Origin: Actinobacteria bacterium HGW-Actinobacteria-1
Lineage (GTDB): Bacteria > Actinomycetota > Coriobacteriia > Anaerosomatales > Anaerosomataceae
Direction: 5' to 3'
Length of the DNA: 64,000 nucleotides
Assembly: GCA_002841355.1 (NCBI GenBank)
Contig: PHFB01000002.1
Span: 369,414 to 433,413 of the forward strand
Part shown: piece by piece, positions 30,837-57,640 of the stretch
Numbering within the stretch: the stretch's first letter is position 1
Layout: every line of letters begins with the position of its first letter
The notes under the pieces: generated by a model
What the model was told of the DNA's origin: nothing
The model's input: the letters and a program-made list of their open reading frames with translations, nothing else
Database searches by the model: none
Position numbers and translations under genes: made by a program

Positions 30837-30920
30837 AAGAACACTCCCGGAAAGGTCGTGCCAATGGCCGCTCGGTACGCTCAAGCGGGTGCTGCCCGCG
30901 AATCGATGAAGGGGACACGA

Positions 30921-31721: not shown

Positions 31722-31723
31722 GG

Positions 31724-35824: not shown

Positions 35825-38794
35825 ATGCACACACGGACGCTCACCACGCGCGCACTCCTCATCCTCGTGCTGCTCTGTGGGTCGGCGGTCGGCCTGCCCG
35901 GCACGGCCTCGGCGGCGACCGTGTCGACGGGCGGCGCGGGGACGTCGTACTACGACGCGTACTACTCAGGCTCGTGGCACGATCTCCAGACGCCGCCGCA
36001 TACGGTCGACGGCCAGGTCGCCTACTGTCTCGAGCAGTCGAAGGACTTCCCCCTCAACAACTCGACGTATGGCCTGTTCGACGTGGCCGCGCTATACAAC
36101 TTCAATACCTACGTTGGCCTGCAGTCCATTCTTCACCGGGGGTACCCGTACGTGACCCCGGCCGGCCTGACCGAGACCCAGGCGCGCTACGCCACCGCGA
36201 ACGCCATCCGTGCGTGGATGCGCGAGTCGGCCGGCGTCGGCTACACATTCATGGACATGAGCACCTACACGCAGGACGCCGCGACGTGGTCGCGCTTGAG
36301 ACCAGCTCCGGGTCTCGGGGGATCCGAGGCGATGTTCCGCTGGACGATCGATCTTGTGACTGGCGCGCGCAACCGCGTGCTTCCGGCCCGGAGCGTGAGC
36401 GCCGCGGCCGTCGCGCTCCGGCCGAACGCGGACTACACGCGGCTTGTCGGCCAGACGACGGTGTCATTCAACGACCTGAACGGCTACTACACGGTCGACG
36501 TGCCGCCGGGTGTGTCGCTCTCGGGCTACACCGGCGGCAACGGAGACGCGCTGACGGTCTCCGTGCCCTGCACCGCAGCCTGGATCGGCCGCTCGGTCTC
36601 GCTCACCCTCTACGGGTACGACAGTCGTGTTCCAGCGAACATCTTCTACTACGCTCCCGGTGACACGTCGTACCAGCGAGTGGTGTCTGCTCAGTCCTCG
36701 AGTTTCCAGGTCGCTGCCTCGGCCGCAGTTCCCGTTGGGTCCGGCTCCGGCGCTTTGCGGATCACCAAGACGGATGTGGTGGATGGTGCGCCGCTGGGTG
36801 GAGCCGTCTTCGAGCTCCTTTGGAACAGCACCGTCGTCGCTTCGGGATCGACGGACGCTGCGGGGGATCTCACGTTCACCGGACTTGCCCCTGGCTCCTG
36901 GACGGTCAGGGAGCAGGCCGCTCCGCAGGGCTACCTGCTCGATGTGACGCCGCATTCAGTCACGGTGCCCGATGGCGGCACGGCTACGCTTAGGCTCACG
37001 AACGAACGTGCCTTGCGGCCAGTGCGCGTCACCAAGACCGACTCGCTCACGGGTGCGGTCCTCGAGGGAGCCGTCTTCGAGATCCGGCAGGGCGCGACGG
37101 TGATCGAGGCGCTCACCACGAACGCGAGCGGGGTTGCCGAGAGCGCCCCACTGCCGTTCGGGGACTACACGCTTGTCGAGACCGTGGCGCCGGCGAGCCA
37201 CATGCTTGACGCCACGCCATATCCGTTCATGATCAACGCGACCTCACCCACGACGATACAGATAGCGCGCACAGACCAGCCCTACCGCCCGGTCACGCTC
37301 ATCAAGACCGACGAGCTCACGGGCACGGTCCTCGAGGGGGCCGTTTTCGAGATCCGCCGAGGGGCCAGCGTCGTGGAAACGCTCACCACGGACGCTAATG
37401 GCACGGCGGCCTCGGCACCCCTTCCCTTCGGCGACTACGAACTCGTGGAAGTGACAGCGCCGGCGGGCTACGTTCTCGATAGCGTCGCGACGACGTTCAC
37501 TGTCGATGCGGCTTCATCTGCGGCATTCGAGTTCTCGCGCACCGATCCCCGTGTGCGCGGCACCGTGCGCTTGGAGAAGCGCTCGGACGGGCAAGACGCA
37601 CGGCTCCTGCCGGGCGCGGTCTACGAGATCTGGCGCGTGCGCGATACATCGCCGCTTGCCGCACCGTTCGATCCGGCCGAGGATCCGACGGATCCGACCG
37701 CGACGTTCACGACCGACGCTGAGGGCGTCGCACAATCTGACCCGCTCGAGTACGGGTGCTACTACGCTGTCGAGACGACCGCGCCTGTCGGCCACGCGCT
37801 CAATCCCACGCGTCACTTCTTTGAGATCCGCGAGGACGAGGCCGTGATCTTCCTTGAGCTCACCGACGACGTACTGCCGGTGAACCATGGCGGGGTGATG
37901 CTGCGGTATCGGAACATCTGGGATGGCACGGAGATCGCCAAGGCGTGGGGCTACAACGCTGAGATCGGCACCGAGTACATGCCGCGTGTCCGGGCCGAAG
38001 GCCTCGACAAGATGCCGATCGAGGGCTTCTCGTACGTGACAGCCGACTACGCACCCCATACCGAGCTCGTCGACGGCAAGCTGCTGGTCACGTACTGGTA
38101 CCGGCAGACCCTTTCCGGGGACTGGCTGAAGGTTCGCACTGGCGATGACGGCCGGGCGCGGCTCACTGCGAAAGACCGCGAGACCTATGGGCTGCTCTCG
38201 GATGCCGAGCTCTACTCCCAGCTCCTCGAGGCGAAGGCTGCGAACCCGGACGTGATCGGCTACCTCTCGATTCCCGGCACTGACCTCCATGAGCCGGTGG
38301 TGCAGACCACGGACAACGTGAACTACCTCACACACGCGGCGGATGGCGATGCCGATGCGCGGGGCGCGATCTTCGCCGACTACCGCTCGCCGCGCTATGC
38401 GGGCGACAGCTCGCGGGCGATGCTGCTCCACGGTCACAACATGCGGGACGGCTCGATGTTCGGAATTCTCGCCTCCTATGGGGACGCGGACTTCTGGGCG
38501 GCGCACCCCTTCATCCAGTACGTCGACGCCGCCGGCAACGGTGGGACGTGGCTCGTCTACTCGGCGCGTGTGGCCGACGGCTCCGACGATGCGTTTACGT
38601 TCCCAGTCATGCGGCCGTACTCGGATCGCATTGCGCGCTGGGCGGATCGCTCGTTCCTGGATCCAGGTTTCCGGCCGGACCCCGCCGGCCGTACGCTTAC
38701 GCTCTCGACGTGCGCGTATCACGTTGAGGATGGCAAGTTGCTTGTCCATGCCGAGCTGATCGAGTGCGACTCGAAGGGCGATGCCGGCAACTGA
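35825..38794 (+). CDS. Thioester-domain-like adhesin with four SpaA-type domains fused to a class B sortase
   Basis: A 989-residue surface protein. Residues 1-31 form a signal peptide. Residues 32-300 resemble a thioester adhesin domain, with Cys68 in VAYCLEQ and a GYPYVTPAG...TETQ segment (Gln119); the helix after it reads YATANAIRAW, where relatives usually have a Gln, so a bond is not certain. Four SpaA-like domains (about 315-680) have isopeptide-type Lys/Glu pairs (RITKTD, RVTKTD, LIKTDE; VREQ, VETV, VEVT). A linker with MLRYRNIWDGTEIAK follows. Residues about 810-985 are a sortase B domain: GYLSIPGTDLHEPVV, LLHGHNM (His871) and TLSTCAY (Cys963). The usual catalytic Arg position is Lys971. 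No LPXTG signal is present. The gene ends in a terminator. Confidence 0.8.
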   Translation: MHTRTLTTRALLILVLLCGSAVGLPGTASAATVSTGGAGTSYYDAYYSGSWHDLQTPPHTVDGQVAYCLEQSKDFPLNNSTYGLFDVAALYNFNTYVGLQSILHRGYPYVTPAGLTETQARYATANAIRAWMRESAGVGYTFMDMSTYTQDAATWSRLRPAPGLGGSEAMFRWTIDLVTGARNRVLPARSVSAAAVALRPNADYTRLVGQTTVSFNDLNGYYTVDVPPGVSLSGYTGGNGDALTVSVPCTAAWIGRSVSLTLYGYDSRVPANIFYYAPGDTSYQRVVSAQSSSFQVAASAAVPVGSGSGALRITKTDVVDGAPLGGAVFELLWNSTVVASGSTDAAGDLTFTGLAPGSWTVREQAAPQGYLLDVTPHSVTVPDGGTATLRLTNERALRPVRVTKTDSLTGAVLEGAVFEIRQGATVIEALTTNASGVAESAPLPFGDYTLVETVAPASHMLDATPYPFMINATSPTTIQIARTDQPYRPVTLIKTDELTGTVLEGAVFEIRRGASVVETLTTDANGTAASAPLPFGDYELVEVTAPAGYVLDSVATTFTVDAASSAAFEFSRTDPRVRGTVRLEKRSDGQDARLLPGAVYEIWRVRDTSPLAAPFDPAEDPTDPTATFTTDAEGVAQSDPLEYGCYYAVETTAPVGHALNPTRHFFEIREDEAVIFLELTDDVLPVNHGGVMLRYRNIWDGTEIAKAWGYNAEIGTEYMPRVRAEGLDKMPIEGFSYVTADYAPHTELVDGKLLVTYWYRQTLSGDWLKVRTGDDGRARLTAKDRETYGLLSDAELYSQLLEAKAANPDVIGYLSIPGTDLHEPVVQTTDNVNYLTHAADGDADARGAIFADYRSPRYAGDSSRAMLLHGHNMRDGSMFGILASYGDADFWAAHPFIQYVDAAGNGGTWLVYSARVADGSDDAFTFPVMRPYSDRIARWADRSFLDPGFRPDPAGRTLTLSTCAYHVEDGKLLVHAELIECDSKGDAGN

Positions 38795-38882: not shown

Positions 38883-39155
38883 GCCGTCGCCAGGGTTGGC
38901 AGCAGGTCGTCACCCCGTTGGAGACGGCTCGAGACGAGCAGGTCGTCCGCTTGAGCCCAACTCCGTGACCGGAGAATGTGCAGTTCAGGTATGCCAACAT
39001 GTGTCTTTGCCGCTCTGTTGTCAGGGTTGCGTCCAGCACGTCTCGGGCACTTCGGTTCAGACTCGGGGTGCCCCCGGTTCGTCTCGCGCGCGCACTGACT
39101 TCATGTCAGACTGAAGGCCTAGAATGGCGATCCAAACATTGAGGAGGTAGAACGC
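38883..39155 (+). promoter_or_regulatory. Gap before the methyltransferase with a possible promoter and operator
   Basis: No gene is visible. TAGAAT at 39120-39125 is a possible -10 for the methyltransferase gene. The inverted repeat CTGAC-TTCAT-GTCAG at 39095-39109 lies over the expected -35 position and could be an operator site. Shine-Dalgarno GGAGG is seen at 39142-39146. Confidence 0.4.
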
Positions 39156-40799
39156 GTGAATCCGCTGGCGGCGACCAAGGCGAGAGGAGCGTTCTTCACT
39201 CCACCGGAGATGGCCGGGTTCATCGCCAACTGGGCGATTAGAACACCGGAAGACCGGGTGCTGGAGCCGTCGTGCGGCGAGGCGGCCTTCCTGGTGCCTG
39301 CTATCGAGCGCCTGCGCGCACTGCGACAGACCGACCTAGGAATATCGAGGCAGGTGTGGGGCGCCGAACTCCACGCCCCATCCGCGAGGATTGCCTGCGA
39401 GATGATCCGCTCCTCCACTGGCATTAGCATTTCTGAGCGGGTTCGGATTGGTGACTTCTTTGAGGCGCGTTCTGAGCGCGACCTGCCGTTGATGGATGCG
39501 TGCATTGGCAATCCACCGTACATTCGCTACCAGTCCTTTGCCGGTGACGCCCGTAAACGAGGCCGAGAGGCGGCGTTTGCGGCTGGCGTCCCCATAGACG
39601 GTCTTGCGAGCTCATGGGCGCCGTTCACCGTACACGCGGCGTCATTCCTTAAGTCCGGCGGTCGCCTCGGGCTAGTGCTGCCCGCAGAGCTGTTGTCAGT
39701 CAACTACGCAGCCCCTGTCCGGCGGCACCTACTGGATCATTTCGGATGCGTTCGAGTCATCCTCTTCGAGGAACGGGTGTTTCCGGACGTCCTCGAGGAA
39801 GTGGTTCTCTTGCTCGCCGAGGGCGAAGGACCATGCGACAGATTCGACATAGTCCAAGTCGCCGGCCTGTCCGACCTCGCGACTCTTGAGACGCGAGAAT
39901 GGTCGACGTCGCCCGATGCTGGAAAGTGGACGAAGCTCTTGCTTCCGGAATCGACGCGCGAAGCAGTTGTTGCGATTGATGCTGTCGGAGGGTTCACTTC
40001 GCTCGGCGACGCGGGAACGATCTCAACCGGAATGGTGACGGGCGGCAACGACTACTTCTGTATCAGTGAGGCTGAAAGGCTTGCCCATGACTTGAGCCTG
40101 GCTCAAGTGCGAAGGATGCTGCCGCCAGGGTCCAAGCATGCGCGCGGCATCGACTACACATCCGCCCACTGGGAAGAGGCAAGGGACGAAGGCGCGAGAG
40201 TGTGGCTCTTCTCTCCCTCGACCTACCCGAGCAACGCAGCGCGAGCCTACATCCGACAGGGTGAAGAACTCGAGCTGGACCAAGCGTACAAGTGTCGCGT
40301 TCGAACACCTTGGTTCCGCGTTCCGGCAGTCAACGCACCCGATCTGTTCATGGTCTACATGGCCAACGAGGGTCCTCGGTTCATCGAGAACCCGTCGAGA
40401 CTCCTCAACGTCAACTCAGTTCATGGCCTGTACCTCAACGCGGCATATCGGGACTTGGTCTCAGTGTTGCCGACGGCATCGCTGACGACATTCACGTTAC
40501 TTGGGGCCGAACTGGTGGGCAGGTCGTACGGCGGCGGCCTCCTGAAGCTCGAGCCGCGTGAGGCGCTGAACCTGCCCGTTCCAACGGCCGCGCTGCTCAA
40601 GCGCTGCAAGAGGCAGTTGATGAATGCCAGGCCGACTGTGGATGCGCATCTGAGACACGGCCGCTTCAATGAAGCGGTGCGGATCGTCGATGACATCATC
40701 CTTGTCCAGGGGATGTCACTCGGCCCAGACGTTGTGGACGGCGTACGACAAGGCAGAGAGCATCTCTTCGGGAGGCGCAAGAAGCGCAGCCAGGGATAG
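39156..40799 (+). CDS. N6-adenine DNA methyltransferase (Eco57I/TaqI-like)
   Basis: A 547-residue gamma-type methyltransferase. Motif X/I: ARGAFFTPPEMAGFIANWAI, then LEPSCGEAAFLVPAI for AdoMet binding. The catalytic motif IV, GNPPYIRYQ, is at about residue 120 and marks an N6-adenine enzyme. The C-terminal 300 residues would contain the target-recognition domain. GTG start behind GGAGG. A nuclease-type gene follows eight bases downstream, the layout of a type II restriction-modification pair, though a role within the whole downstream operon is possible. Recognition sequence cannot be told. Confidence 0.85.
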   Translation: MNPLAATKARGAFFTPPEMAGFIANWAIRTPEDRVLEPSCGEAAFLVPAIERLRALRQTDLGISRQVWGAELHAPSARIACEMIRSSTGISISERVRIGDFFEARSERDLPLMDACIGNPPYIRYQSFAGDARKRGREAAFAAGVPIDGLASSWAPFTVHAASFLKSGGRLGLVLPAELLSVNYAAPVRRHLLDHFGCVRVILFEERVFPDVLEEVVLLLAEGEGPCDRFDIVQVAGLSDLATLETREWSTSPDAGKWTKLLLPESTREAVVAIDAVGGFTSLGDAGTISTGMVTGGNDYFCISEAERLAHDLSLAQVRRMLPPGSKHARGIDYTSAHWEEARDEGARVWLFSPSTYPSNAARAYIRQGEELELDQAYKCRVRTPWFRVPAVNAPDLFMVYMANEGPRFIENPSRLLNVNSVHGLYLNAAYRDLVSVLPTASLTTFTLLGAELVGRSYGGGLLKLEPREALNLPVPTAALLKRCKRQLMNARPTVDAHLRHGRFNEAVRIVDDIILVQGMSLGPDVVDGVRQGREHLFGRRKKRSQG

Positions 40800-40807
40800 A
40801 GGGGGTC

Positions 40808-41545
40808 ATGGGAGCTCACGAGGCGCTCATAGGAGCGATAAGAGCAGCCGCGCCGAAGCCGGATGCGTCTGCGAAGCAGTCAGAGAAGAAGAACTACTCC
40901 GAGCGGCTCTCGAACACGATTGCGAGGGCCTTCGCTAGCGAGTTGCGCGTGGCAGGTGTGATGGACTGTGCGCCGCTCGTCAAGGAAGACGGCGCCACCT
41001 ACGGCTCAGAGCGTCGAATCGCAGGCGGGATTGGCGCGAAGAAGGTGGACGTGTCCTGGGCGACGGACGCAAGCGGATTGCTGCTAGGTATCTCGATCAA
41101 GACCATCAGCTTCCCTGATGCCCGCTCCGGCAACTATCAGAAGAACCTCTCCAACCGGCGTGGCGACATGCTCTTTGAGGCGGTCACTCTGCATCGCCGG
41201 TTCCCGTTTGCGGTGCTCGCCGGATTGTTCTTCCTTGATGTCGGCGCCGCTTCTGACGACACCGATCGGCGCTCCTCAACTGTACAGAACGCGCATGACC
41301 TATTGCGCCTGTTCAGCGGCAGGCCCGATCCAGCCGGAAGGGAAGAGCAGCTGGAGCGGCTCTACGTGGTCACCTATGACGCGACGCCAGGCAAAGAGAG
41401 CATCGAGATGCGTGAAGCCGGCCGGTTCGACGAACCCGCTATCGATGCGAATCAGGTGCTCGCGGAGGTGCTGAGCATAGTAGCGGACCGCAACTCCGAC
41501 TTCTACGACTTCGTCGACGGCGCCCTGCTCCCTCGTCGCAGCTAG
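40808..41545 (+). CDS. Probable type II restriction endonuclease
   Basis: A 245-residue protein encoded directly after the methyltransferase. A PD-(D/E)xK-like arrangement can be seen at about residues 75-100: AKKVDVSWATD, then GLLLGISIKTISFPD, where Asp and Lys would coordinate metal and the middle residue is Ser rather than Glu. The N-terminal half is helical with ERLSNTIARAFASELRVAG. Function inferred from the motif and the neighbour. It could also be an accessory nuclease. Ends 16 bases before a separate promoter. Confidence 0.65.
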   Translation: MGAHEALIGAIRAAAPKPDASAKQSEKKNYSERLSNTIARAFASELRVAGVMDCAPLVKEDGATYGSERRIAGGIGAKKVDVSWATDASGLLLGISIKTISFPDARSGNYQKNLSNRRGDMLFEAVTLHRRFPFAVLAGLFFLDVGAASDDTDRRSSTVQNAHDLLRLFSGRPDPAGREEQLERLYVVTYDATPGKESIEMREAGRFDEPAIDANQVLAEVLSIVADRNSDFYDFVDGALLPRRS

Positions 41546-41561
41546 TACGCTTTAGAGAGAG

Positions 41562-41591
41562 TTGACACATTAGAGTAGGGCGGACTACACT
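41562..41591 (+). promoter_or_regulatory. Promoter for the 41627-45161 operon
   Basis: TTGACA (41562-41567) and TACACT (41586-41591) with an 18-base spacer form a strong promoter. It lies 36 bases before the ATG at 41627, so the two unknown genes and the GHKL ATPase can be expressed apart from the methyltransferase and nuclease. Confidence 0.75.
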
Positions 41592-41626
41592 CCTCTTGTC
41601 TAATCGACCTGCAGGAGGTATTCGCC

Positions 41627-42235
41627 ATGCTGACCGAACGAGAACTGGTCCTAAGCGCCCGTCAGCTCGAGGCTTCAATTCAGGAGCACGCGTTCGAGCT
41701 GCTGCGGTCCCAGGGATCGTACGACCGGGCCCAAGGTCTGATTGTGGTAGCGAGCGATGTGAACAGGATCGCCTCGCGACTTGATGAGCTGCTTCAGCAG
41801 GTGGCCACAACCACTATCCCCCGCGTCCCCTCCTCTGAGCCCAAGCGTCGAGCGAACGGCCGGAAGTCCACTCTTGCCAAGTACCCTCGTTTCTTCGTAA
41901 GCGGCGACCGAGTCGTCAAGATCGGCAAAGGCAAGCAGAAGTCAGCCAAAGAGTATCGGCACGAGGCCACAAAGAGCTCCTTCGATCAACTCGCGCGATG
42001 GATTGAGTCGCAGTCGGTCGAGGGCCGTCGCGAGTGGCTGGCCAAGGACGCCGACCTTGAGCTTGGGGAGCACGTTCCCGCCTATCAGACGTACCTGCTG
42101 ATAGCCGCGCTGTCGTCCGCCGGCGTCCTTCGCCAAGTCAAGAGAGGCACGTACTCACTCGGCCCGAACGATGGCGGTCCCAAAGACTGGTGGGACGCGC
42201 TTGGGTCGCTGCCTGCGTTTGAGACGGAGGCGTAG
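41627..42235 (+). CDS. Unknown protein of the GHKL cassette
   Basis: A 202-residue basic protein behind CAGGAGG. N-terminal 65 residues look helical (LSARQLEASIQEHAFELLRS and DVNRIASRLDELLQQ). The middle has KYPRFFVSGDRVVKIGKGKQ, and the C-terminal 70 residues look like a winged helix (YQTYLLIAALSSAGVLRQVK, then GTYSL). No recognised catalytic motif. The next gene begins seven bases after the stop. It may be a DNA-binding or adaptor subunit for the ATPase, by inference. Confidence 0.6.
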   Translation: MLTERELVLSARQLEASIQEHAFELLRSQGSYDRAQGLIVVASDVNRIASRLDELLQQVATTTIPRVPSSEPKRRANGRKSTLAKYPRFFVSGDRVVKIGKGKQKSAKEYRHEATKSSFDQLARWIESQSVEGRREWLAKDADLELGEHVPAYQTYLLIAALSSAGVLRQVKRGTYSLGPNDGGPKDWWDALGSLPAFETEA

Positions 42236-42241
42236 TCAGAG

Positions 42242-42865
42242 ATGGTCGCTCAGTCCTCGCTCTCCAATGTCGACGTAATCGTCTATGCACTTGCGGACCT
42301 GGGCGGCACGGTGACGCAGGTGGCGCACGAGCGATTGGCGTTCAGGGCATTCGAGCTTGCGCCAGACCGCTTCTCGTGGACACTGTCAGAGTTTCGGCAC
42401 TTGCCAGACAAGGACATTGCTCGTGTGGCCCTTGTGGATGCCTCGAGAGACAAGTACGGCAGCTTGGTCGTCGGTTCGGTGAAGGCAGGCTACTGGCGGC
42501 TCACACCAGCCGGTGTGAAGTGGTTCGCAGTGCATGGCGACAAGGTGGCCGCTCGACTTGGTCGTCCTGCAGCATCGTCCAGCGGTCGTCCCAATGACGT
42601 GAAGCGGATCGTGTCAAAGACGAAGAAGCACTATGTCTTCAAGGAGTTCCAGGCAGGGCGGCTCGAAGAACTCCCTCCAGCGGCCTTTGCAGACATGCTC
42701 GGCTGCAGTCCGGACGCGTCTCCCAAGGTGATGAGAAGCAGACTCGATGCACTCGAGAGCGCGGCGGAAGCGTCGTCCGATGTAGAACTGAAGGAAATGG
42801 TCGCAGCGCTTGGGGAGCGCTTCGCGACTCTTCTGCACGGAGGGGGATCTGATGAAGCCCGGTAA
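42242..42865 (+). CDS. Second unknown protein of the GHKL cassette
   Basis: A 207-residue protein. The first 100 residues resemble a winged-helix domain (ALADLGGTVTQVAHERLAFR; GYWRLTPAGVKWFAVHGDKV). The remaining part is helical and charged, with KSKMR-like basic runs absent and an Ala/Glu-rich end. It overlaps the ATPase gene by 14 bases, so the two are probably translated together. Function not recognised. Confidence 0.6.
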   Translation: MVAQSSLSNVDVIVYALADLGGTVTQVAHERLAFRAFELAPDRFSWTLSEFRHLPDKDIARVALVDASRDKYGSLVVGSVKAGYWRLTPAGVKWFAVHGDKVAARLGRPAASSSGRPNDVKRIVSKTKKHYVFKEFQAGRLEELPPAAFADMLGCSPDASPKVMRSRLDALESAAEASSDVELKEMVAALGERFATLLHGGGSDEAR

Positions 42866-45161
42866 CCCTATGCCCGTTGAGTTGACGAAGCGCCATGGAC
42901 AAATCGTCGCATCCGAGTCTATCCGGGATGTCTTCGATGCGCTCCGTGAGCTCGTAACGAACTCGGACGACAGCTATCACCGCATGGGCCAAAAGGGTGG
43001 ACGGATTGTTGTGGAGATCGAGCGGCATCGCGGTGGCGCTCCCTCGATCATCAGGATTCGTGACCGCGCCCAAGGCATGACTCTGGACGAAATGAAGTCC
43101 AAGATCCGGCGCGTTGGCGATCGGACCAGCAGTGCAGGGGATCGGGGGTTCTTCGCTCGTGGCGCGCGTGACTGCGCAGCGCTCGGGGACATGACTTTCG
43201 AGTCGATCAAGGACGGACGCTACCACAAGGCACAGTTCACCAAGAACTGGGACTTCATTCCGTGGGAAGCCGATGGGCGCAAGGGCGGTTCCCCGCTGGC
43301 CACCGAGGAGGATCACGTCCGCCTAGGAATCAGAGGGCACGGGTCGGTGGTGACGATTGAAACCCACACCGGGGTTCCATTGTTCCGCACGTTTGAGGAG
43401 AACCTCCCGTTGTTCTGGCCACTTCGTGACATCCTCGACGAAAACGGCCCATCCGAGGTGTTCATCGCAGACGGGGCGCAGCAAACGCTCACCCCGAACA
43501 GAGTCTGCTATCGGATGCCAGAGGCCGAGTTGGTGCTTGATGAATCGTATGCCGTCCCCGGGTACGAGGGTGCCTCCGCGCACCTCTGCATCTACAGAGC
43601 CCCTGAGCCCCTGGTGGACGAGGCCGACAGGTTTCGGCGCTCAGGCGTCATCGTCAAGGCCACCCGCGCAGTTCACGAGTGCAGCTTCCTACTGGCTCGG
43701 GACCTAGAGAGCGACCCACTCGCAAAACGCTACTTCGGGCGCCTTGAGTGCGACTATATCGACACGATCTGCGAGGAGTGGGACGAGACGCGTGAAGTAG
43801 GGCAACCGCACCCTGCGGCCAATCCCGAGTTCCTTGTTGATCCTCAGAGGCAACGCGGACTATCTAGAACGCACCCGTTCACCTCGGCGCTATATGAGTA
43901 CCCGACGAGCAAGATCCGAGAGCTCGTGGCTGAAGATCGTCGTGCATCGACCAAGGAAACGGGCAGCATTGGCGGGGACGAACTTCAGCGCAGGCTGCGC
44001 GACCTGGCGAAGCTTGCTGAGCGATTCCTGCAGGACGAGGCTGAGGCAGAGGACCTGATCACAGATGACGAGGAAGTTCAGGACGATCTGTTCCAGTCAG
44101 GCGTTCTCCTTGTCCCGACGTACGCCAAGATCCGAGAGGGGCGAGAGCGGAACCTGACCCTGTACGTGTCGACGAAGCTACCCGTCACCAGTGAGACCGA
44201 GTTCGCAGTGGTAGCTGATAGCCCGGCAGTGACCGTTGTCGATCAGCTGATCTACCTGCGACCTCACAAGAAGCGTCAAGACGTGATGCTCGGGACCGTC
44301 GTTCTGCGCGGTGAGTCGACCGAGGAAGGCATTCTGGTCAGCGTCTCGTCTTCCGGCTTGCCGAGTGCTGAAGCGCTAGTCAGCGTTGTGCCCGATGCAG
44401 TTGAGGATCGAGACTTCGTCGACAAGCTCGAATTCGAACACAAGAAGTACAAGGTTCGTGAAGGTCGCAAGAAGGCCTTGCGGGTCTTCGCGCAGTACCC
44501 AGACTTGGTAACCGGCGAAACGGCGCTACACGTCATCTCGAGTTCGCCGCAAGATGTCGTGGTCCGAGGCAACGCGACACTCACGCCGGTGGCCGGGACG
44601 AACTTCGCGGCAGCGGAGATCGTCGTGGAGGCTCGGCGTCAGCTTGTGGCGCCGGTGACTATCACCGCGACGGCGAACGACGCATCATGCGTGGCCCAGG
44701 TTCGGGTGGTCCAAGATGAGCGCCAAGGGGTGCCGCTCAAGATCGAGATCGTGGACAAGCAGCTCTGGGGTTTCCGGGCTCAATGGGCCGATTCCGAGGG
44801 CAGGCCCAATGTGCTGCAGGTGTCGGCGCAGCACCCATCAGTGAAGCGTTATCTCGGCGCGGCCCCGGAGTACGGCGGTCAGGATTCGCCGCTTTGCAGA
44901 CTGCTGCTCGCGGAAATCGTCGGTGAGGCGATTTGTAGACGCACGCTGACGTACCAGGCGAGGAATCGCTCATGGGAGTTCGACTGGGCGAGGATGCAGG
45001 ACAATGAAGAAATCGTTGACAACGTAATGGTGCATTTCAACCGGCTCACTCAGTCGTTCCTTCCGACGGCTCACAAGGCCATGCTTGGTGACAGTGAGGT
45101 TCGCCGATTCGTCGAGTCAGCCGGGCAGGCCGAGCGTGGAGAGGATGGACAGCTCTTCTAG
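42852..45161 (+). CDS. MORC/MutL-like GHKL ATPase (paraMORC type)
   Basis: A 769-residue protein. A GHKL ATPase domain occupies about residues 5-200: N-box in ALRELVTNSDDSYHR, G1 box in IRIRDRAQGMTLDEM, and a lid with SAGDRGFFARGARDCAALGD. The rest is a long beta-rich region with extra domains (LTLYVSTKLPVTSETEFAVV and similar Ig-like stretches) and no helicase or nuclease motif. Prokaryotic paraMORC ATPases are known from restriction-modification operons, which fits the methyltransferase/nuclease upstream. The ATG at 42852 follows GGAGGGGG. No other partner is seen before the Qat genes. Confidence 0.75.
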   Translation: MKPGNPMPVELTKRHGQIVASESIRDVFDALRELVTNSDDSYHRMGQKGGRIVVEIERHRGGAPSIIRIRDRAQGMTLDEMKSKIRRVGDRTSSAGDRGFFARGARDCAALGDMTFESIKDGRYHKAQFTKNWDFIPWEADGRKGGSPLATEEDHVRLGIRGHGSVVTIETHTGVPLFRTFEENLPLFWPLRDILDENGPSEVFIADGAQQTLTPNRVCYRMPEAELVLDESYAVPGYEGASAHLCIYRAPEPLVDEADRFRRSGVIVKATRAVHECSFLLARDLESDPLAKRYFGRLECDYIDTICEEWDETREVGQPHPAANPEFLVDPQRQRGLSRTHPFTSALYEYPTSKIRELVAEDRRASTKETGSIGGDELQRRLRDLAKLAERFLQDEAEAEDLITDDEEVQDDLFQSGVLLVPTYAKIREGRERNLTLYVSTKLPVTSETEFAVVADSPAVTVVDQLIYLRPHKKRQDVMLGTVVLRGESTEEGILVSVSSSGLPSAEALVSVVPDAVEDRDFVDKLEFEHKKYKVREGRKKALRVFAQYPDLVTGETALHVISSSPQDVVVRGNATLTPVAGTNFAAAEIVVEARRQLVAPVTITATANDASCVAQVRVVQDERQGVPLKIEIVDKQLWGFRAQWADSEGRPNVLQVSAQHPSVKRYLGAAPEYGGQDSPLCRLLLAEIVGEAICRRTLTYQARNRSWEFDWARMQDNEEIVDNVMVHFNRLTQSFLPTAHKAMLGDSEVRRFVESAGQAERGEDGQLF

Positions 45162-45187
45162 AGGTGCGCGTGGGGTGAGCGCCGCGC

Positions 45188-45269: not shown

Positions 45270-47177
45270 ATGCCGGACGAGGAGCCCAGGGTGCGGCTGT
45301 GGTCGGACGACCCGTCCCGAGTCGACCTACTGTCGTTTGATGCAGTTGCCGACACGGTCGCCGATGCCGTACTGGACGACGGTCTTGACCCGCTGGCCCT
45401 CGGCATTTCGGGGCCGTGGGGAAGCGGCAAGACGACTGTTCTACGCCTCGTCGAGAACCGGCTCGCCGACGAGAGCAAGATTGGCAGTCGCATCATCGTC
45501 GTGGACAGTGATCCTTGGCGGTATGACCCTGCTGTCGGTGCCAAAGAGAGCCTGATCTCCCAGGTGCTAGATGCTCTGACTGCCGAGTTCAAGTCGGAAT
45601 TGGGTGGCGCGGAGAAGGCGCTCGAGACCATCAAGAGGCTGGCGAAGCGTGTGGACTGGTCCAAGGCGATCAGCGTCGCGGCCCGCGCGTCGCTCATGCT
45701 ACAGATACCGTCCGTGGACGACCTAACCTCCCTGATAAAGGAGGACGGCCTGAACGGCGAGTCCCAGAGCCGCGGTCTGGACTCATTTCGGGACGAGTTC
45801 GCACGGCTCATGGAATCCCCCGAGCTTACGCAAGTTCGTCGGGTCGTGGTGCTGGTCGATGACCTTGACCGGTGTCTGCCGGAGACGGTTGTCGAGACTC
45901 TCGAGGCCATCCGCCTGTTCCTGGCTGTTCCGAAGATGTCCTTCGTGCTGGCAGCCGACGACGAGCGAGTCGCCGAGGCGATACGCGCGCACTACCCGAT
46001 GTCCGACCGGCCCGACGAATCGTCCTCGGCCCCCCGCGAGGAGCCGTCGAAGCTCTACCTACACAAGATCGTGCAGACGACAGTTCCATTGCCCGCACTG
46101 AGTCGCTTCGACACGGAGGCCTTCCTACTGCTTCTTCAGCTGCAAAACCGTGAGTCGGATCCGTTGACAGAGCAGCAATTCACCACGGTCTTAGAGGGTT
46201 GCTCCAAGATTCGGACGACCACCGGGGACCTCGATGAGCTCAAGGTTCCGAAGGGCGTGAGTATTAACGACGAGCTCGCCTTTGCCGCGCGGTTGACGCC
46301 GATGCTGTACGAGAAGCTCCGTGGCAACCCGCGGCGGGTGAAGCGATTCCTCAACGATCTCAACGTGCGTCGATCCATAGCCCGACGTAGGGGGATTGCG
46401 CTGCAACCAGCGGTTGTTGCGAAGCTCATGGTGCTCGAGGTTCTGTTGTCCGATGAGTTCAAGATCATGTTGGGCTGGCTAGCGAAGGGAGAGCTTCGGC
46501 AGCAGGTCGCCTCGCTGGAGAGACAGTCGCGAGAGCCGTCTCTTGCTCCCGCCGCGGGTTCGCCAGCCGAATCCGCGGCGGCCGGAGATGCACAGAAACC
46601 CCGACGCACGCTTTCGGTCGCTCGCGGGGGCGAGCTTGCAGGGTTAGCTGGCGAGGAGTTCAGCGAGAACTTCATCCGATGGTCGAAGCTCCCTCCTGAT
46701 CTCCGGGATCTCGACTTGGCGCCCTACCTGTATCTCGCCGCGTCTTTTGCGGGTGAACCGCTCCTCGACACTGACCTTCCTGAGCGCCTTCGTGACATAG
46801 CGGCGAATTTGGTGTCGTCATCCCGCGCGGAGCAGAAGTCAGTTCAGGCCAGCGACCTTGCGGCGCTCACGTCGTCGGACACCGACGCTTTGCTCCAGCA
46901 CCTGGGTCGTGTCGCGCGCGACCGCCCGCGCGAGCAGCGCAGCGCAGTCACCGGAATCTTGCGAGTCCACCGCGTGCACCCGTCTCACGCTGACGCGGCG
47001 GTCCGCGCCCTATTGGCGCTGCCCATTGGCGAGGTGGCGATGCCTACCGTGCTCCTCTTCGGGGATCCCGCTGACGCGGCGCTCAAGCCTGTCCTCGACG
47101 AGTGGAAGTCGAAGACGACGAACGGACTCGTCAAGAATGCCGTCGACGAAGCGGTGAAGCGAATGGGGGCCGGATAG
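45270..47177 (+). CDS. qatA: QatA, KAP-family ATPase of the Qat anti-phage system
   Basis: A 635-residue KAP P-loop NTPase. Walker A is ISGPWGSGKTTVLRL at about residue 50, Walker B is RRVVVLVDDLDRCLPE at about 200, with an ETLEAIRLFL helix after it, as in KAP family proteins. Central region has KLYLHKIVQTTVPLPALSRF, then NPRRVKRFLNDLNV. Family knowledge: QatA is the large ATPase of the QatABCD anti-phage system. The ATG at 45270 is behind a long G-run; a frame upstream at 45207 is less supported. Its TAG overlaps the GTG of qatB. Confidence 0.9.
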   Translation: MPDEEPRVRLWSDDPSRVDLLSFDAVADTVADAVLDDGLDPLALGISGPWGSGKTTVLRLVENRLADESKIGSRIIVVDSDPWRYDPAVGAKESLISQVLDALTAEFKSELGGAEKALETIKRLAKRVDWSKAISVAARASLMLQIPSVDDLTSLIKEDGLNGESQSRGLDSFRDEFARLMESPELTQVRRVVVLVDDLDRCLPETVVETLEAIRLFLAVPKMSFVLAADDERVAEAIRAHYPMSDRPDESSSAPREEPSKLYLHKIVQTTVPLPALSRFDTEAFLLLLQLQNRESDPLTEQQFTTVLEGCSKIRTTTGDLDELKVPKGVSINDELAFAARLTPMLYEKLRGNPRRVKRFLNDLNVRRSIARRRGIALQPAVVAKLMVLEVLLSDEFKIMLGWLAKGELRQQVASLERQSREPSLAPAAGSPAESAAAGDAQKPRRTLSVARGGELAGLAGEEFSENFIRWSKLPPDLRDLDLAPYLYLAASFAGEPLLDTDLPERLRDIAANLVSSSRAEQKSVQASDLAALTSSDTDALLQHLGRVARDRPREQRSAVTGILRVHRVHPSHADAAVRALLALPIGEVAMPTVLLFGDPADAALKPVLDEWKSKTTNGLVKNAVDEAVKRMGAG

Positions 47178-47977
47178 TGGGAACGAGCGGTTCGTATTCG
47201 GGCAGCGGCGGCAAGGCTGGTCGAGACCTCCGTAGCGGTCTCGGGAACTGGCTCGACTCGGTTCCAGAGGCTGGCGGCACCGACACAGCTGAGAACGGAA
47301 GCCAAGTTCCAGTGAGGCTGCCCCCCGCGACGCTTGCGCCGGCCATTCAGCTGCTGCGTCCGCGCAGCACATCCGGGGGCAGGGGCGACGGTCCGAGCGG
47401 GGGAGCGGGTGCGGGCGAAGGGCCGACCGGTCGCGCGGGAGGAGGGCCGATCCGGTCTGCTCCCCGGGTCGCCGCCTCCGCCGGTCGGGCAGCCGCTGCC
47501 GCCTACGCGTTTCGGGTTGCAGATGTTGCAGGACTGCAAGACTTGGGGCTCGATTACCGCGAGCTCAGTTCACTTGGTCCTCTCGACGTCACAAGACGAA
47601 TCGTGGAGATGGCGTGCGGCCCCCGCTCGAACAGCACAATTGAAGACGGCGAGGAACGATACGTGGCTGCCGAGGTGGCGGAGTGGATTCTGGAGCGAGA
47701 CGACGGAGGAGCGCCCCCCACTCCTGACGAGATCGTGCGAGAGACGATTGCCATCATTATCTCTGAAGTCGTTGAGACGGAAGTCGGCGAGATGCTCAGA
47801 ACCGATGAGCGTCCCGAATGGGCTTCACAGCTGGCCGAAGGTCAGATTCGTGAGGCGGCCGAGATCCTGGCAGGACGTGCCCAGCTGACTGCAAGCGGAG
47901 TCACGCATGCGGACTTCGCGCGATCGATTGAAGACGGTATCGAGACACTCCGTCGGATTCTGGGAGGTAGGGCCTGA
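47177..47977 (+). CDS. qatB: QatB
   Basis: A 266-residue protein beginning VGTSGSYSGSGGKAGRDLRS, close to the GTS-S-GGP-type start of QatB. A Gly/Arg/Pro-rich linker occupies about residues 60-105. The C-terminal part is helical (DLGLDYRELSSLGPLDVTRR; VAEWILERDDGG; RETIAIIISEVVETEVGEML). The GTG start lies on the last base of the qatA stop and the TGA overlaps the ATG of qatC. Molecular role in Qat is not established. Confidence 0.85.
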   Translation: MGTSGSYSGSGGKAGRDLRSGLGNWLDSVPEAGGTDTAENGSQVPVRLPPATLAPAIQLLRPRSTSGGRGDGPSGGAGAGEGPTGRAGGGPIRSAPRVAASAGRAAAAAYAFRVADVAGLQDLGLDYRELSSLGPLDVTRRIVEMACGPRSNSTIEDGEERYVAAEVAEWILERDDGGAPPTPDEIVRETIAIIISEVVETEVGEMLRTDERPEWASQLAEGQIREAAEILAGRAQLTASGVTHADFARSIEDGIETLRRILGGRA

Positions 47978-49284
47978 TGTCGACCTTCAGGATGCGTCTC
48001 GCGCTTCCAGAACGGGTATCGCCCTCAATTGCTGCATCATCGTTCTACTGGACGCCAACGGGCAACGATTCATTCGCAGCGACTCTTGGTCCAGGCGTTC
48101 AGCTCGGTCCGCGATTGGGTGCGATGGGCCCAATTCCCCAGAAGAACGCTGAGTTCGTGCACTTGGCCGCCGCTGTGTTCGCCGCCGACAGGTCCGTTCC
48201 TCGAGCCGGCGGCGGGTCGGAATGGAATTCCCGCCGGATCCAGGTTGTCGTGCCTGTTCGCGATGTGGCGGCTTGGAACGCAATCGCTGATGAGATGGCC
48301 GAGCTAGTCGGCTTCCTCACGGGAGACACCTGGACGATCAAGTTCTACAGAGCGGCGTCAAGACGGGAGAAGGTTGAACCGCATCCTACGCCAGTCGCCA
48401 GGGTGCTGCTCCTCAGCGGTGGGGCGGACTCGGCAGTCGGTGCGCTCGTGTCACGATCCCGTCTGCAGCTAGACGAGACGCACGCGCTCTTGTCCCACGT
48501 GGGCCTCACGACTCTTTCGCCGGTTCAGAGGCGCGTTGCGTCGAGCGCCGAGAGGCTCCTCCCCGGACCCTGCCAGCGTCACGTACAAGTGCGTTTCGGA
48601 CGCCATGCTAAGCGCGTCGACGGGGGTCATTACGCCGATGAGCCATCAAGTCGATCTCGCTCGCTCCTGTTTCTCTCACTGGGTCTCGCTGAAGCCTCTA
48701 TCGATGCGGCGCCGCTTTGGATTGCCGAGAACGGCTTTGCCTCGCTCAACCCGCCGCTCGGCCCGGAACGCAGAGGAAGCCTGTCGACACGGACGACCCA
48801 CCCGGCCTTCCTTCGCGGTCTCTCGGAGCTGCTGGTTCGCGTGGGGGCCCACGCGGACATTGAGAACCCGTTTGCATCTTTGACGAAGGGTGAGATGTTC
48901 GCCCTAGCTGCTCAACTCGTGGGCAGTGACGAAGCCTCAGACTACTTGAGCGCGACACACTCGTGCGGTCTATCCGGACAACGGGCGTTCGGTCTGCCTA
49001 CGAACTCGCAGTGCGGCGTCTGCTTCGGCTGCACCGTCCGACGCGCGGCGTTCCACGCGGCGGGGCTGAAGGACCAGACCGACTACATCGCCTCGCGGGG
49101 GGACGTGCGGATTGAGAGCTGGCTCAGACGCAACTCGGTAGTTCGCCCGATGCGTGACTTCGTTCGACGCGGCGTGAAGAGCCGCGACGTCGTGACCATG
49201 AGCCTCCCGCCAGACTACGCCGCCAGTGATGCGCTCGACTTGTGCAGCCGCGCCGTTGTTGAGCTCAAGGGCTTCCTCGGATGA
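47977..49284 (+). CDS. qatC: QatC, QueC-like enzyme
   Basis: A 435-residue protein. A QueC/PP-loop domain occupies about residues 145-370: VLLLSGGADSAVGALVSR is the ATP-pyrophosphatase loop, and the Cys cluster HSCGLSG...QCGVCFGC is a Zn-ligand set as in QueC (7-cyano-7-deazaguanine synthase). The N-terminal 140 residues are unlike QueC. Family knowledge: QatC resembles QueC, and the enzyme may modify DNA, RNA or protein with a nucleoside. It overlaps qatD by four bases. Substrate unknown. Confidence 0.88.
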   Translation: MSTFRMRLALPERVSPSIAASSFYWTPTGNDSFAATLGPGVQLGPRLGAMGPIPQKNAEFVHLAAAVFAADRSVPRAGGGSEWNSRRIQVVVPVRDVAAWNAIADEMAELVGFLTGDTWTIKFYRAASRREKVEPHPTPVARVLLLSGGADSAVGALVSRSRLQLDETHALLSHVGLTTLSPVQRRVASSAERLLPGPCQRHVQVRFGRHAKRVDGGHYADEPSSRSRSLLFLSLGLAEASIDAAPLWIAENGFASLNPPLGPERRGSLSTRTTHPAFLRGLSELLVRVGAHADIENPFASLTKGEMFALAAQLVGSDEASDYLSATHSCGLSGQRAFGLPTNSQCGVCFGCTVRRAAFHAAGLKDQTDYIASRGDVRIESWLRRNSVVRPMRDFVRRGVKSRDVVTMSLPPDYAASDALDLCSRAVVELKGFLG

Positions 49285-50042
49285 CCAGCCTTCCCCCGCT
49301 CGACCTGCACGCCCACGTGAATGTGGATATCGATCCACTCGATCTTCGCGCGCTCCATTCTGTCGTATTCGCGGTAACCCGCTCGCTCGAAGAGGCGGAG
49401 CGGGCAGTGTGCCGCTCTGACGACGCCACAGTGTGGGGAGTCGGTGCGCATCCCAGTCTGTGTTCCGCCGTCAATGACTTCTCCCCACAGGTCTTCTCCC
49501 GACTAGTGAAGCGCACCGCGTTCGTTGGCGAGCTGGGGCTCGATGCGAAGTCTCGAGTACCGATGGTGCGGCAACGCGACACGCTGCGCGAGGCGCTGGC
49601 CGTCCTAGCGGAGCAGCCGCGAATCACGAGTGTCCACAGCTATGGCGCGTGCGAGCACGTCTTGGATGAAGTCGAGGCGGCAGGCGTTCAAGGAATCGTG
49701 CTGCATTGGTGGCTAGGCGACGAAGATGCGACCCGCCGTGCGATTGACCTTGGCTGCTGGTTCTCAGTGAATCCGTCGCAGGCTGAGAATGCGGAGAGGC
49801 TCCGCCTCCTGCCAGTGGACCGCGTGTTGCCAGAGACCGACCATCCTTTCGGAGATCGACGGGTCAGGGAGTCTCGGCCGGGGTGTACAGAGGCCGTTGA
49901 GGAGCGTATCTCCGTGGTTCTCAGCCATCCGCGCGACCAACTCCGCGAGAAGATGTGGTCGAATCTGCAAGCCCTCGTCTCTGCGACATCGACCTACAGC
50001 TTGCTGCCGCGCGCTGTGCGCGCAAGGCTCGCCACGATCTAG
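49281..50042 (+). CDS. qatD: QatD, TatD-like metal-dependent hydrolase
   Basis: A 253-residue TatD-family hydrolase, smaller than usual DNases of the family by little. Metal-binding motifs: LDLHAHVN (H-x-H), GELGLD, TSVHSYG (His), LHWWLGD, and PETDHPFGD. The last gene of the Qat operon, overlapping qatC. Predicted nuclease. It ends 28 bases before the convergent NlpC/P60 gene. Confidence 0.88.
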   Translation: MTSLPPLDLHAHVNVDIDPLDLRALHSVVFAVTRSLEEAERAVCRSDDATVWGVGAHPSLCSAVNDFSPQVFSRLVKRTAFVGELGLDAKSRVPMVRQRDTLREALAVLAEQPRITSVHSYGACEHVLDEVEAAGVQGIVLHWWLGDEDATRRAIDLGCWFSVNPSQAENAERLRLLPVDRVLPETDHPFGDRRVRESRPGCTEAVEERISVVLSHPRDQLREKMWSNLQALVSATSTYSLLPRAVRARLATI

Positions 50043-51162: not shown

Positions 51163-53031
51163 CTACGCCGCCGGCGTCTTCTCGCTGCTCGTCGATAGGA
51201 GCTGCACCATCTTGGGTGTGCGCTTCACATCGAGGATGCACTTGCGCTGCCCCACCATCAGCAGGCAGCGGCCGACCGCCTTGCGTGCCACGGCGTCCGC
51301 CTCGGCACGCGAGAGGTCGTACAGATCCACGATGTGTGCGAGCTCGCGACCGTCGGCGCCGAAGACGACCTTCGTGCTGGCGTTGTCGAGCACAGCTCGG
51401 CCCTGCCGCTCGATCGCGGGGTCGAGGAAGTCGCTCACGTTCTGCGTGGCGACCATGAGCGCGCCGCCGTACTTGCGGATTCGCTTGGCGAAGTTCTTGA
51501 TCGCCTCGAGAGTCGCTGGCGTCTTGGGGTCGATCGCCAGGTGCGCCTCGTCCATGACGACGAGAAGATGCTCGCCGGTGTCGCGGTTAGCCTGGATCTC
51601 GCGCCACATCAGCTGCGTGATGAGGTGGTACTGCGCCGCGTACGTGGACGAGTCGGCCTCCTGTAGCGCGTGGGTTGAGAACACGAGCACGTCGCTACCG
51701 AGCGTGACGTTCGTCTGTCCGTCCCACATCAGTCCCCGCGAGCCCTCGGTGAGGTTCTTGAAGAACAGATCGAGCCCCGCGTACGCCTCACGCTCGCCGG
51801 CCGACGGCTCGACGGCGGCGTGCACGCGCGAGGCAATCTGGGCGCGCAGATCCGAGAGCGTCGGCCACGCCGTCATGTGACTCACGCTTGTGAGATCCAA
51901 AGTCAGGCCGTGATCTCGATACAGCTCACGGACCTCGATCTCGAGGATCTCGCGCGCAGTGTAGTCGTCGGGGAGTTGCAGGGCGAAGAAGGTCTTCAGG
52001 AACTCAAGGTGCCGAGCCACGGGATTGAAGCGGCCCAGATCGGCCTCTTCCTCGTCGTCGGCCACGGCCTCTGTGGCCCAGACCTCGAGCGGGTTGATGA
52101 CCGTCGCGCCGCTGTTGCCCGCGTCGATCCACTGGCCGTCGATCCGGGCCGAGAGCGCCCGGTATTCGTCCTCAGGGTCGATGATGATGACCTTCGTGCC
52201 GGCCATGTGCTCCATGAGGATGTCGAGCTTCATGAACGTGGACTTGCCGCCGCCGGCGTTGCCGAGCACCACCATGTTCGCGTTGGAGCGGTCGGCGAAG
52301 CCGGAGGAGCCGAACCGCCAGCGGTCGATCACGACGACACCGCCGGTGGTGTCCAGCCCGTAGACCTTGCCGTACCCGTCGTTGATGCCCGCCGCCGAGA
52401 AGGGCGCGGCTGCGGCCAGTGTGCTCGAAGGCATCGGCATCGCGTAGAGCTCGTGCAGCCGCGCGGAGCGATAGCCGTAGGGGCTTGAGTGCAGAATCGC
52501 GTCCTTGGTCATGAACCACGGCCGCTGGGCGATGATCTGGTTCGCCGCGAGTCGGCCCTGCACCCCTTTGACGCGTGAGGTTAGCCCCTCGGCGTTCTCG
52601 GCGGTCACGATGAAGGACACGACCGAGTCGAACATCGCCTGGTTCTCCGAACCGGACAGCCGTAGGAGCTCTGCGGCCTGGTCCCGCTTCGCTGAGGCCT
52701 GCATGCGCTCATACGCACCCTTGTTCTTGCTCTCGGCCTGGAAGCTCCAGCCGGAGAGTGAGTCCGAGACGATGCGGTTGAACTCGGCGGCGCTTCGGCG
52801 CACCGCGTCGATGTGGACGGTCACACCGGGCAGCCGGATGCGCGAGAGCCACTCGGCCGGCAGCCGGGCGGGGTACTTCGTGACCACGAGGACGGCCATG
52901 TACTGGTCACCGAATCTGCATGAGTTCTTGTCCGAGAACTCGGCCACCACTGGCGCGATGAGCTCTCGCAGGCGCGTGTTCGGCAGGATCTGCGTGACCT
53001 GTTCGGTCACTTCGGTCTTCTTGCGGGCCAT
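51163..53031 (-). CDS. VirB4-type T4SS ATPase
   Basis: A 622-residue ATPase. Walker A GNAGGGKSTFMKLDI is at about residue 260 and Walker B HLLVVMDEAHLAIDP near 460. FAKRIRKYGGALMVATQNVSDFLD follows, typical of VirB4/TraC/TraE. It lacks the usual N-terminal CagE-like region, which is in the separate gene at 53051. It powers pilus or channel assembly at the inner face of the membrane. The gene is followed by the NlpC/P60 gene after 9 bases. Confidence 0.92.
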   Translation of the reverse strand: MARKKTEVTEQVTQILPNTRLRELIAPVVAEFSDKNSCRFGDQYMAVLVVTKYPARLPAEWLSRIRLPGVTVHIDAVRRSAAEFNRIVSDSLSGWSFQAESKNKGAYERMQASAKRDQAAELLRLSGSENQAMFDSVVSFIVTAENAEGLTSRVKGVQGRLAANQIIAQRPWFMTKDAILHSSPYGYRSARLHELYAMPMPSSTLAAAAPFSAAGINDGYGKVYGLDTTGGVVVIDRWRFGSSGFADRSNANMVVLGNAGGGKSTFMKLDILMEHMAGTKVIIIDPEDEYRALSARIDGQWIDAGNSGATVINPLEVWATEAVADDEEEADLGRFNPVARHLEFLKTFFALQLPDDYTAREILEIEVRELYRDHGLTLDLTSVSHMTAWPTLSDLRAQIASRVHAAVEPSAGEREAYAGLDLFFKNLTEGSRGLMWDGQTNVTLGSDVLVFSTHALQEADSSTYAAQYHLITQLMWREIQANRDTGEHLLVVMDEAHLAIDPKTPATLEAIKNFAKRIRKYGGALMVATQNVSDFLDPAIERQGRAVLDNASTKVVFGADGRELAHIVDLYDLSRAEADAVARKAVGRCLLMVGQRKCILDVKRTPKMVQLLSTSSEKTPAA

Positions 53032-57481: not shown

Positions 57482-57640
57482 GTGCACCTCCTGACCTCAG
57501 CGTCTTGTAGCGGGCTGGGGTGGAAGCTAGCACAGGAGGCCGGCGGTCTCGGACTTTGTGGTTGAGTTCGCAGCTATCTCTGCGCCAAGGCCGCCGTAGG
57601 GGCGTAGAGTAATCGGTCTGGACGGCTATCACGCGAGGCA

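What the first reader, a model, noticed from the sequence alone, without database searches (positions are those of the whole stretch)
39156..45161. Restriction-modification pair linked to a MORC-like GHKL ATPase and two unknown winged-helix proteins
A methyltransferase (NPPY) and a nuclease-like gene are followed by a separately promoted operon of two unknown proteins (202 and 207 residues) and a 769-residue GHKL ATPase. Its N-box ELVTNSDDSY and DRAQGM box fit MutL/MORC-type ATPases rather than histidine kinases. paraMORC ATPases in restriction operons are established, but I do not recognise this five-gene composition from named systems. The second promoter (TTGACA-N18-TACACT at 41562-41591) suggests that the ATPase module can be switched on apart from restriction. 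It may be a module that clamps or loops DNA for the nuclease, or a backup abortive system.
Basis: partly seen in the sequence, partly recalled or inferred. Interest (0 to 1): 0.75.

Follow-up and report, generated by a model that had tools for sequence, protein, structure and literature searches.

The report
Mobile clamp-like ATPase beside restriction genes
A mobile DNA block in an environmental bacterium joins an ordinary DNA-cutting restriction system to a widespread but unnamed pair of genes, a DNA-binding protein and a MORC/Hsp90-like ATPase, that probably clamps onto DNA and may help defend the cell.

Summary
The five genes are real and under purifying selection. The same block (82% nucleotide identity over 6.1 kb) occurs in one other genome of the order, at another site and without the Qat system that follows here, so the genes travel together. 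It is nevertheless a composite. (1) The methyltransferase plus the 245-aa protein is a stand-alone Type II-like restriction pair, found alone on plasmids. (2) The 207-aa winged-helix protein plus the GHKL ATPase is a conserved two-gene module: adjacent in 50 of 76 relatives across many phyla, with strongly correlated histories (r 0.89), and absent from PADLOC and NCBIfam. The ATPase models as a MORC/Hsp90/Top6B-type module with C-terminal beta-sandwich domains; the MORC signature motif is missing. (3) The 202-aa protein is specific to this cassette. About four in five relatives of the module lack an adjacent methyltransferase, but about nine lineages have one, from unrelated families. Here the block is cargo of an integrative conjugative element. 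An ATP-gated DNA clamp is the likeliest mechanism; no activity was tested.

The parts
39156..40799 (+). DNA adenine methyltransferase of the M.Eco57I type (547 aa)
   Evidence: PF22837 8e-18, PF02384 5e-16, PADLOC MTase_II 1.5e-134; 48% identical homologues on plasmids
40808..41545 (+). Putative restriction endonuclease (245 aa)
   Evidence: No family hit; about 50% identical homologues directly downstream of the MTase on five plasmids; conserved KxVDV-x(n)-SxK and KNxxNR pattern, PD-(D/E)XK inferred
41562..41591 (+). Sigma-70-like promoter TTGACA-N18-TACACT for the second half of the block
   Evidence: conserved as TTGACA-N18-TATACT in L013
41627..42235 (+). 202-aa protein of unknown family; possible helical N-terminus and winged-helix C-terminus
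   Evidence: Relative found only in L013; AbiEi_4 E 0.011 below cut-off
42242..42865 (+). 207-aa protein: N-terminal winged helix plus C-terminal helical domain; conserved partner of the ATPase
   Evidence: AlphaFold model pLDDT 91; winged-helix match Z 10.3; adjacent to the ATPase in 50 of 76 relatives
42852..45161 (+). [quoted passage not shown]
   Evidence: Motifs; model pLDDT 86, pTM 0.54; MORC3 Z 21.0, 294 residues, rmsd 3.4; Hsp90 tied at 20.9; Top6B 18.8
45270..50042 (+). Neighbouring QatABCD anti-phage system (not part of the five-gene block)
   Evidence: QatA, QatC, QatD hits; QatB slot starts GTG 47177 giving MGTSGSYSG

Best explanation
The region is a mobile composite defence cassette. 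Its first two genes are a complete Type II-like restriction-modification pair: an M.Eco57I-type adenine methyltransferase marks host DNA and the 245-aa protein probably cuts unmarked DNA. The last two genes are a conserved two-gene module found in many phyla: a winged-helix DNA-binding protein and a GHKL ATPase with a MORC/Hsp90/Top6B-type ATP-binding and middle region, beta-sandwich arms and a C-terminal domain. Shown: gene content, conservation, co-inheritance, modelled folds, intact ATP-binding motifs, mobility of the block. Inferred: the ATPase dimerises on binding ATP and closes around DNA as a clamp (as MORC, MutL and Top6B do), the winged-helix protein loads it or chooses the DNA, and the clamp either holds, compacts or silences invading DNA by itself or presents it to whatever effector is encoded next door, here the restriction pair. 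The 202-aa protein is a lineage-specific adaptor expressed with the module from its own promoter. In this genome the cassette is cargo of an integrative conjugative element, next to QatABCD.
For: The same five genes, and nothing more, at 82% nucleotide identity at another site in G352 (L013), without Qat; their proteins (GHKL 87%, MTase 87%, 207-aa 91%) are more alike than PurL 74% and PurF 72% of the same genomes, which points to lateral transfer. Restriction pair alone on plasmids with no ATPase. Pair adjacent in 50 of 76 loci, mirror-tree r 0.89, 0 of 2000 permutations. GHKL motifs conserved in 47 of 48. Fold matches. Unrelated MTases adjacent in about nine lineages, some overlapping the 207-aa gene (L015 by 8 nt, L061 by 20 nt) or 19 nt behind the ATPase (L066). 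Conserved internal promoter. Conjugative element genes around it.
Against: No activity of any gene was tested. About four in five relatives of the pair have no adjacent methyltransferase. Near neighbours hold about 7 MTases in 116 genes against at most about 3 in 118 distant genes of the same loci, a suggestive and not a decisive difference. DNA clamping rests on fold analogy, and Hsp90, which clamps proteins and not DNA, matches equally well. The five-gene arrangement itself is known in only two genomes.
Confidence: 0.5

Rival explanations
1. One integrated five-gene restriction system: the ATPase and its partners are obligatory subunits that loop or clamp DNA for this particular nuclease.
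For: The five genes travel as one block between families of the order with sharp edges; GHKL ATPases in restriction operons are known (PMC2292703).
Against: Close homologues of the methyltransferase and nuclease occur as a two-gene pair on plasmids without the ATPase; the winged-helix/ATPase pair mostly occurs without them; a separate conserved promoter splits the block.
Confidence: 0.15
2. Passenger genes only: the winged-helix/ATPase pair is an independent stand-alone defence or silencing system that merely shares a defence island with restriction and Qat genes.
For: Pair found as a two-gene insert in housekeeping operons (ATP synthase L039/L046, trp L061), flanked by 41-bp inverted repeats in L051 and by a 13-bp direct repeat inside a methyltransferase gene in L071; neighbours often Fic, ORF6N, PIN toxin-antitoxin genes.
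Against: Methyltransferase genes of unrelated families abut the pair repeatedly, several in tight operons.
Confidence: 0.3
3. The ATPase is a chaperone-like or regulatory protein (Hsp90 type) with its winged-helix partner acting as a transcription regulator, without direct DNA clamping.
For: Hsp90 matches the model as well as MORC (Z 20.9 against 21.0); the partner has an ordinary winged helix similar to transcription regulators.
Against: Permanent linkage to a DNA-binding partner and association with DNA-modifying enzymes fit a DNA role better.
Confidence: 0.12

Closest known systems
Prokaryotic MORC and paraMORC ATPases (Iyer et al. 2008, PMC2292703)
   Same: N-terminal GHKL domain with all motifs, followed by an S5/middle domain; sporadic distribution by lateral transfer; found with methyltransferases in some loci
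   Different: MORC signature GhXhhpXXRhl absent in 48 of 48; no superfamily II helicase next to it in the window; C-terminal beta-sandwich domains; constant winged-helix partner not described there
MZA system ATPase MzaB (Gao et al. 2020, from memory; NCBIfam NF041932)
   Same: MutL/GHKL-type ATPase in a defence locus; one of 48 relatives hits MzaB weakly
   Different: No Z1, AIPR or other mza genes in the block; window protein has no hit
Type II restriction-modification systems with an M.Eco57I-type methyltransferase
   Same: First two genes: methyltransferase and adjacent putative nuclease
   Different: Specificity unknown; nuclease belongs to no family in the libraries searched
Eukaryotic MORC2/MORC3 and SMCHD1
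   Same: Modelled ATPase region superposes (MORC3 Z 21.0; SMCHD1 Z 19.1)
   Different: No CW zinc finger or SMC hinge identified; sequence identity about 10-14%
QatABCD (PMC13279940)
   Same: Directly downstream in the window, also defence cargo
   Different: Separate system; not found in G352, which carries the same five-gene block

Membership tests
MORC family | Four GHKL motifs with catalytic Glu and Mg-binding Asn | tested here: met
   E33, N37, D39, D40, D71, G75 in 47 of 48; R98 and G104 in 48 of 48
MORC family | S5 domain behind the GHKL domain | tested here: met
   Model residues 10-370 superpose on the MORC3 ATPase module, Z 21.0, 294 residues
MORC family | Specific GhXhhpXXRhl motif in the S5 domain (PMC2292703) | tested here: not met
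   0 of 48 sequences in the aligned stretch; this family has GhhhK there in 24 of 48
paraMORC2 | Conserved ExxxH motif in the S5 domain (PMC2292703) | tested here: not met
   No such pair in residues 190-370 of the window protein
paraMORC1 and 3-5 | Family-specific C-terminal extensions (RE fold, TIR, HxH domain; PMC2292703) | tested here: inconclusive
   C-terminus models as beta-sandwich domains plus alpha/beta domain; no reference sequences of these families were at hand and the C-terminal part was not searched alone
MZA system | MzaB ATPase with the other mza genes | tested here: not met
   No mza hit for any of the nine window proteins
Type II restriction-modification | DNA methyltransferase gene | tested here: met
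   PF22837, PF02384, PADLOC MTase_II
Type II restriction-modification | Cognate restriction endonuclease | tested here: inconclusive
   245-aa protein matches no family or solved structure; conserved pairing with the methyltransferase and VD...SxK pattern only
QatABCD (neighbour) | QatA ATPase, QatB with N-terminal glycine, QatC QueC-like, QatD TatD-like, in this order | tested here: met
   QatA 4e-93, QatC 9e-73, QatD 2e-37 in order, though below NCBIfam's equivalog cut-offs; PADLOC QatA, QatC, QatD; QatB slot has no family hit but reads MGTSGSYSG
Anti-phage defence system | Protection against phage or plasmid | not testable with these tools
   Needs an experiment

The most novel reading that the evidence does not exclude
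The winged-helix/GHKL pair is an autonomous, undescribed two-gene mobile system, spread over bacteria and archaea, that topologically clamps or silences foreign DNA as eukaryotic MORC proteins do, and that can be plugged into unrelated restriction systems as a booster or back-up.
Probability: 0.3. Interest if true: 0.8.

Novelty: new variant of a known kind. Interest (0 to 1): 0.52.

Why it matters
Prokaryotic MORC-like ATPases have been linked to restriction systems by gene context since 2008, yet how they act is largely open. A two-gene unit with a fixed DNA-binding partner, found in many phyla and repeatedly placed beside unrelated methyltransferases, gives a minimal set that can be expressed, purified and assayed. 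If it clamps or silences DNA by itself, it would be a prokaryotic parallel to MORC-based silencing of foreign DNA in eukaryotes.

Tried and rejected
Histidine kinase: rejected by motifs and by the S5/middle domain in the model. Viral or plasmid relatives of the ATPase: none in viral contigs (two scans), plasmids or phages. Relatives of the 202-aa protein: none in plasmids, phages or 295 other genomes of the phylum; the similar-looking 190-aa coiled-coil proteins upstream in L017 and L033 do not align significantly (hhalign E 0.13). A binomial test that methyltransferases lie close to the pair gave p about 2e-6, but the query set was drawn from near neighbours and is biased; the unbiased near/far family scans show about 7 of 116 against at most about 3 of 118, so I do not lean on the p value. 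Transposon ends common to all loci: direct and inverted repeats flanking the pair are mostly at chance level; only L051 and L071 stand out. No solved relative of the nuclease by sequence. An attachment-site repeat of the conjugative element was not found inside the window. Literature searches found no description of this pair.
Full report
What is there. The window carries, on the + strand, a methyltransferase (39156-40799), a 245-aa protein (40808-41545), an 81-nt gap with a sigma-70-like promoter, a 202-aa protein (41627-42235), a 207-aa protein (42242-42865) and a 769-aa GHKL ATPase (42852-45161). The next four genes, 45270-50042, are QatA, the QatB slot, QatC and QatD; the QatB slot can begin at a GTG at 47177 and then reads MGTSGSYSG, in line with the essential N-terminal glycine motif reported for QatB (PMC13279940).

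Are the five genes real and one block? Genome G352 of the same order but another family carries the same five genes in the same order, 82% identical over 6108 nt, matching window 39062-45166. Beyond this the flanks differ: similarity falls to about 35-40% just outside and stops at the ATPase stop codon. Differences are concentrated at third codon positions in every gene (34-44% against 2-6% at second positions), so all five are under purifying selection. The promoter is TTGACA-N18-TACACT here and TTGACA-N18-TATACT there. The proteins are more alike between the two genomes (ATPase 87%, methyltransferase 87%, 207-aa protein 91%) than PurL (74% over most of its length) and PurF (72%), which points to lateral transfer. 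QatA was not found in G352, so Qat is not part of the block. Only 2 of 69 genomes of the order hold the ATPase.

The block is a composite. The methyltransferase and the 245-aa protein occur next to each other, about 48% and 50% identical, on plasmids of Mycobacterium marseillense, Bradyrhizobium, Pseudonocardia and Cryobacterium, and no plasmid of the collection holds a relative of the ATPase. Related methyltransferases on other plasmids are also followed by a larger protein that shares the KxVDV...SxK and KNxxNR pattern. This is what a two-gene Type II restriction-modification pair looks like; the nuclease assignment is inference, as no family or structure library recognises it.

The winged-helix/ATPase pair. 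A scan of 84,980 species genomes with a four-sequence profile gave 140 relatives of the ATPase, of which 80 were kept, from many bacterial phyla and from archaea. The gene of the 207-aa family lies directly before the ATPase in 50 of 76 loci with enough upstream sequence. Pairwise distances of the two proteins correlate at r 0.89 over 47 loci; none of 2000 permutations exceeded 0.151. Loci without the partner group into few clades (four changes on the tree). The ATPase family has only a weak general Pfam match (HATPase_c_3 in 29 of 48) and no PADLOC or NCBIfam model of its own.

Structure. The 207-aa protein models at pLDDT 91: residues 5-109 form a winged helix (SSV1 F-93, Z 10.3, 85 residues, rmsd 2.8) and the rest a helical domain. 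The ATPase models at pLDDT 86, pTM 0.54. Residues 10-370 superpose on MORC3 (Z 21.0, 294 residues, rmsd 3.4), Hsp90 (20.9), MORC2 (20.2), SMCHD1 (19.1) and topoisomerase VI B (18.8); the first of these are ties. [quoted passage not shown] The MORC signature of PMC2292703 is absent in all 48 sequences, so this is MORC-like in fold but not a MORC by that definition.

Association with restriction genes. Among the nearest neighbours of the pair in 47 loci (116 proteins), the commonest families are DNA methyltransferases (N6_N4_Mtase 4, N6_Mtase 3), PIN, ORF6N and Fic. Individual cases: L015 and L061 have a methyltransferase overlapping the 207-aa gene by 8 and 20 nt, L066 has one 19 nt behind the ATPase, L074 a Type ISP-like enzyme upstream, L079, L040 and L043 one on the other strand, and in L071 the pair lies inside a methyltransferase gene. 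With the window this makes about nine lineages and several unrelated methyltransferase families, scattered on the ATPase tree. As a control, 118 proteins from the same loci at least 3.5 kb away gave no methyltransferase family with two or more members in Pfam and three mad2-like hits in PADLOC. The excess near the pair is suggestive, not decisive, and most pairs have no methyltransferase beside them.

Mobility. In L071 a 13-bp direct repeat CATATAGATTGTT brackets a 2.7-kb insert with only the pair. In L051 near-perfect 41-bp inverted repeats bracket the pair. In L039 and L046 the pair lies between ATP synthase genes, in L061 between trp genes. In the window the block and Qat are cargo of an integrative conjugative element: tyrosine integrase at a tRNA-Glu gene, MobL relaxase, ParA/ParB, TraG coupling protein, VirB4-like ATPase.

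Most likely mechanism. Steps shown: intact ATP-binding site, GHKL-S5 architecture, fixed winged-helix partner, co-inheritance, mobility. Steps inferred: ATP-driven dimer closure around DNA, as described for MORC proteins (PMC12216690 and PMC8277788, seen as abstracts) and, from general knowledge, for MutL and Top6B; loading or targeting by the winged-helix protein; cooperation with the neighbouring effector, here the restriction pair. Hsp90 matches as well as MORC, so a chaperone role is not excluded. No experiment bears on any of this yet.

Verdict. The real find is the phylum-spanning winged-helix/GHKL pair, an unnamed relative of the prokaryotic MORC-like ATPases.

Noticed in passing
45270-50042: QatABCD anti-phage system directly downstream of the block; the QatB slot can start at GTG 47177 and then encodes the N-terminal glycine (MGTSGSYSG).
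   Followed up: partly
20442-57487: Integrative conjugative element: tyrosine integrase at tRNA-Glu (20407-20482), MobL relaxase 29316-30836, ParA/ParB 30858-32677, VirB4-like 51163-53031, TraG 55511-57487. No attachment-site repeat was found inside the window.
   Followed up: partly
35825-38794: 989-aa surface protein with thioester-like and four SpaA domains and a C-terminal sortase domain in one polypeptide, inside the conjugative element.
   Followed up: no
L071:9285-11990: The winged-helix/ATPase pair interrupts a DNA methyltransferase gene; 13-bp direct repeat CATATAGATTGTT at both edges, looks like a target-site duplication.
   Followed up: partly
L051:8940-12420: The pair is bracketed by near-perfect 41-bp inverted repeats, as if it were the cargo of a transposon without a transposase.
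   Followed up: partly
L002, L016, L021, L029, L031, L042, L064, L068 (upstream of the pair): A recurrent 71-93-aa protein (ERFKRLAxxRTNxxLxxLRxLGNxSN...) lies just before the 207-aa family gene; possible third component in other lineages.
   Followed up: no
ATPase model m6f4d1cf59658 (window 42852-45161): Long structural match to an uncharacterised 702-aa protein of the giant virus Hokovirus HKV1 (A0A1V0SGC9, Foldseek E 2e-34) and to one of Yasminevirus: the whole architecture may exist in giant viruses.
   Followed up: no
L037:1859-2845: A protein with a DGQHR motif, like DndB or DGQHR-domain proteins, lies upstream of a related GHKL ATPase that lacks the winged-helix partner.
   Followed up: no
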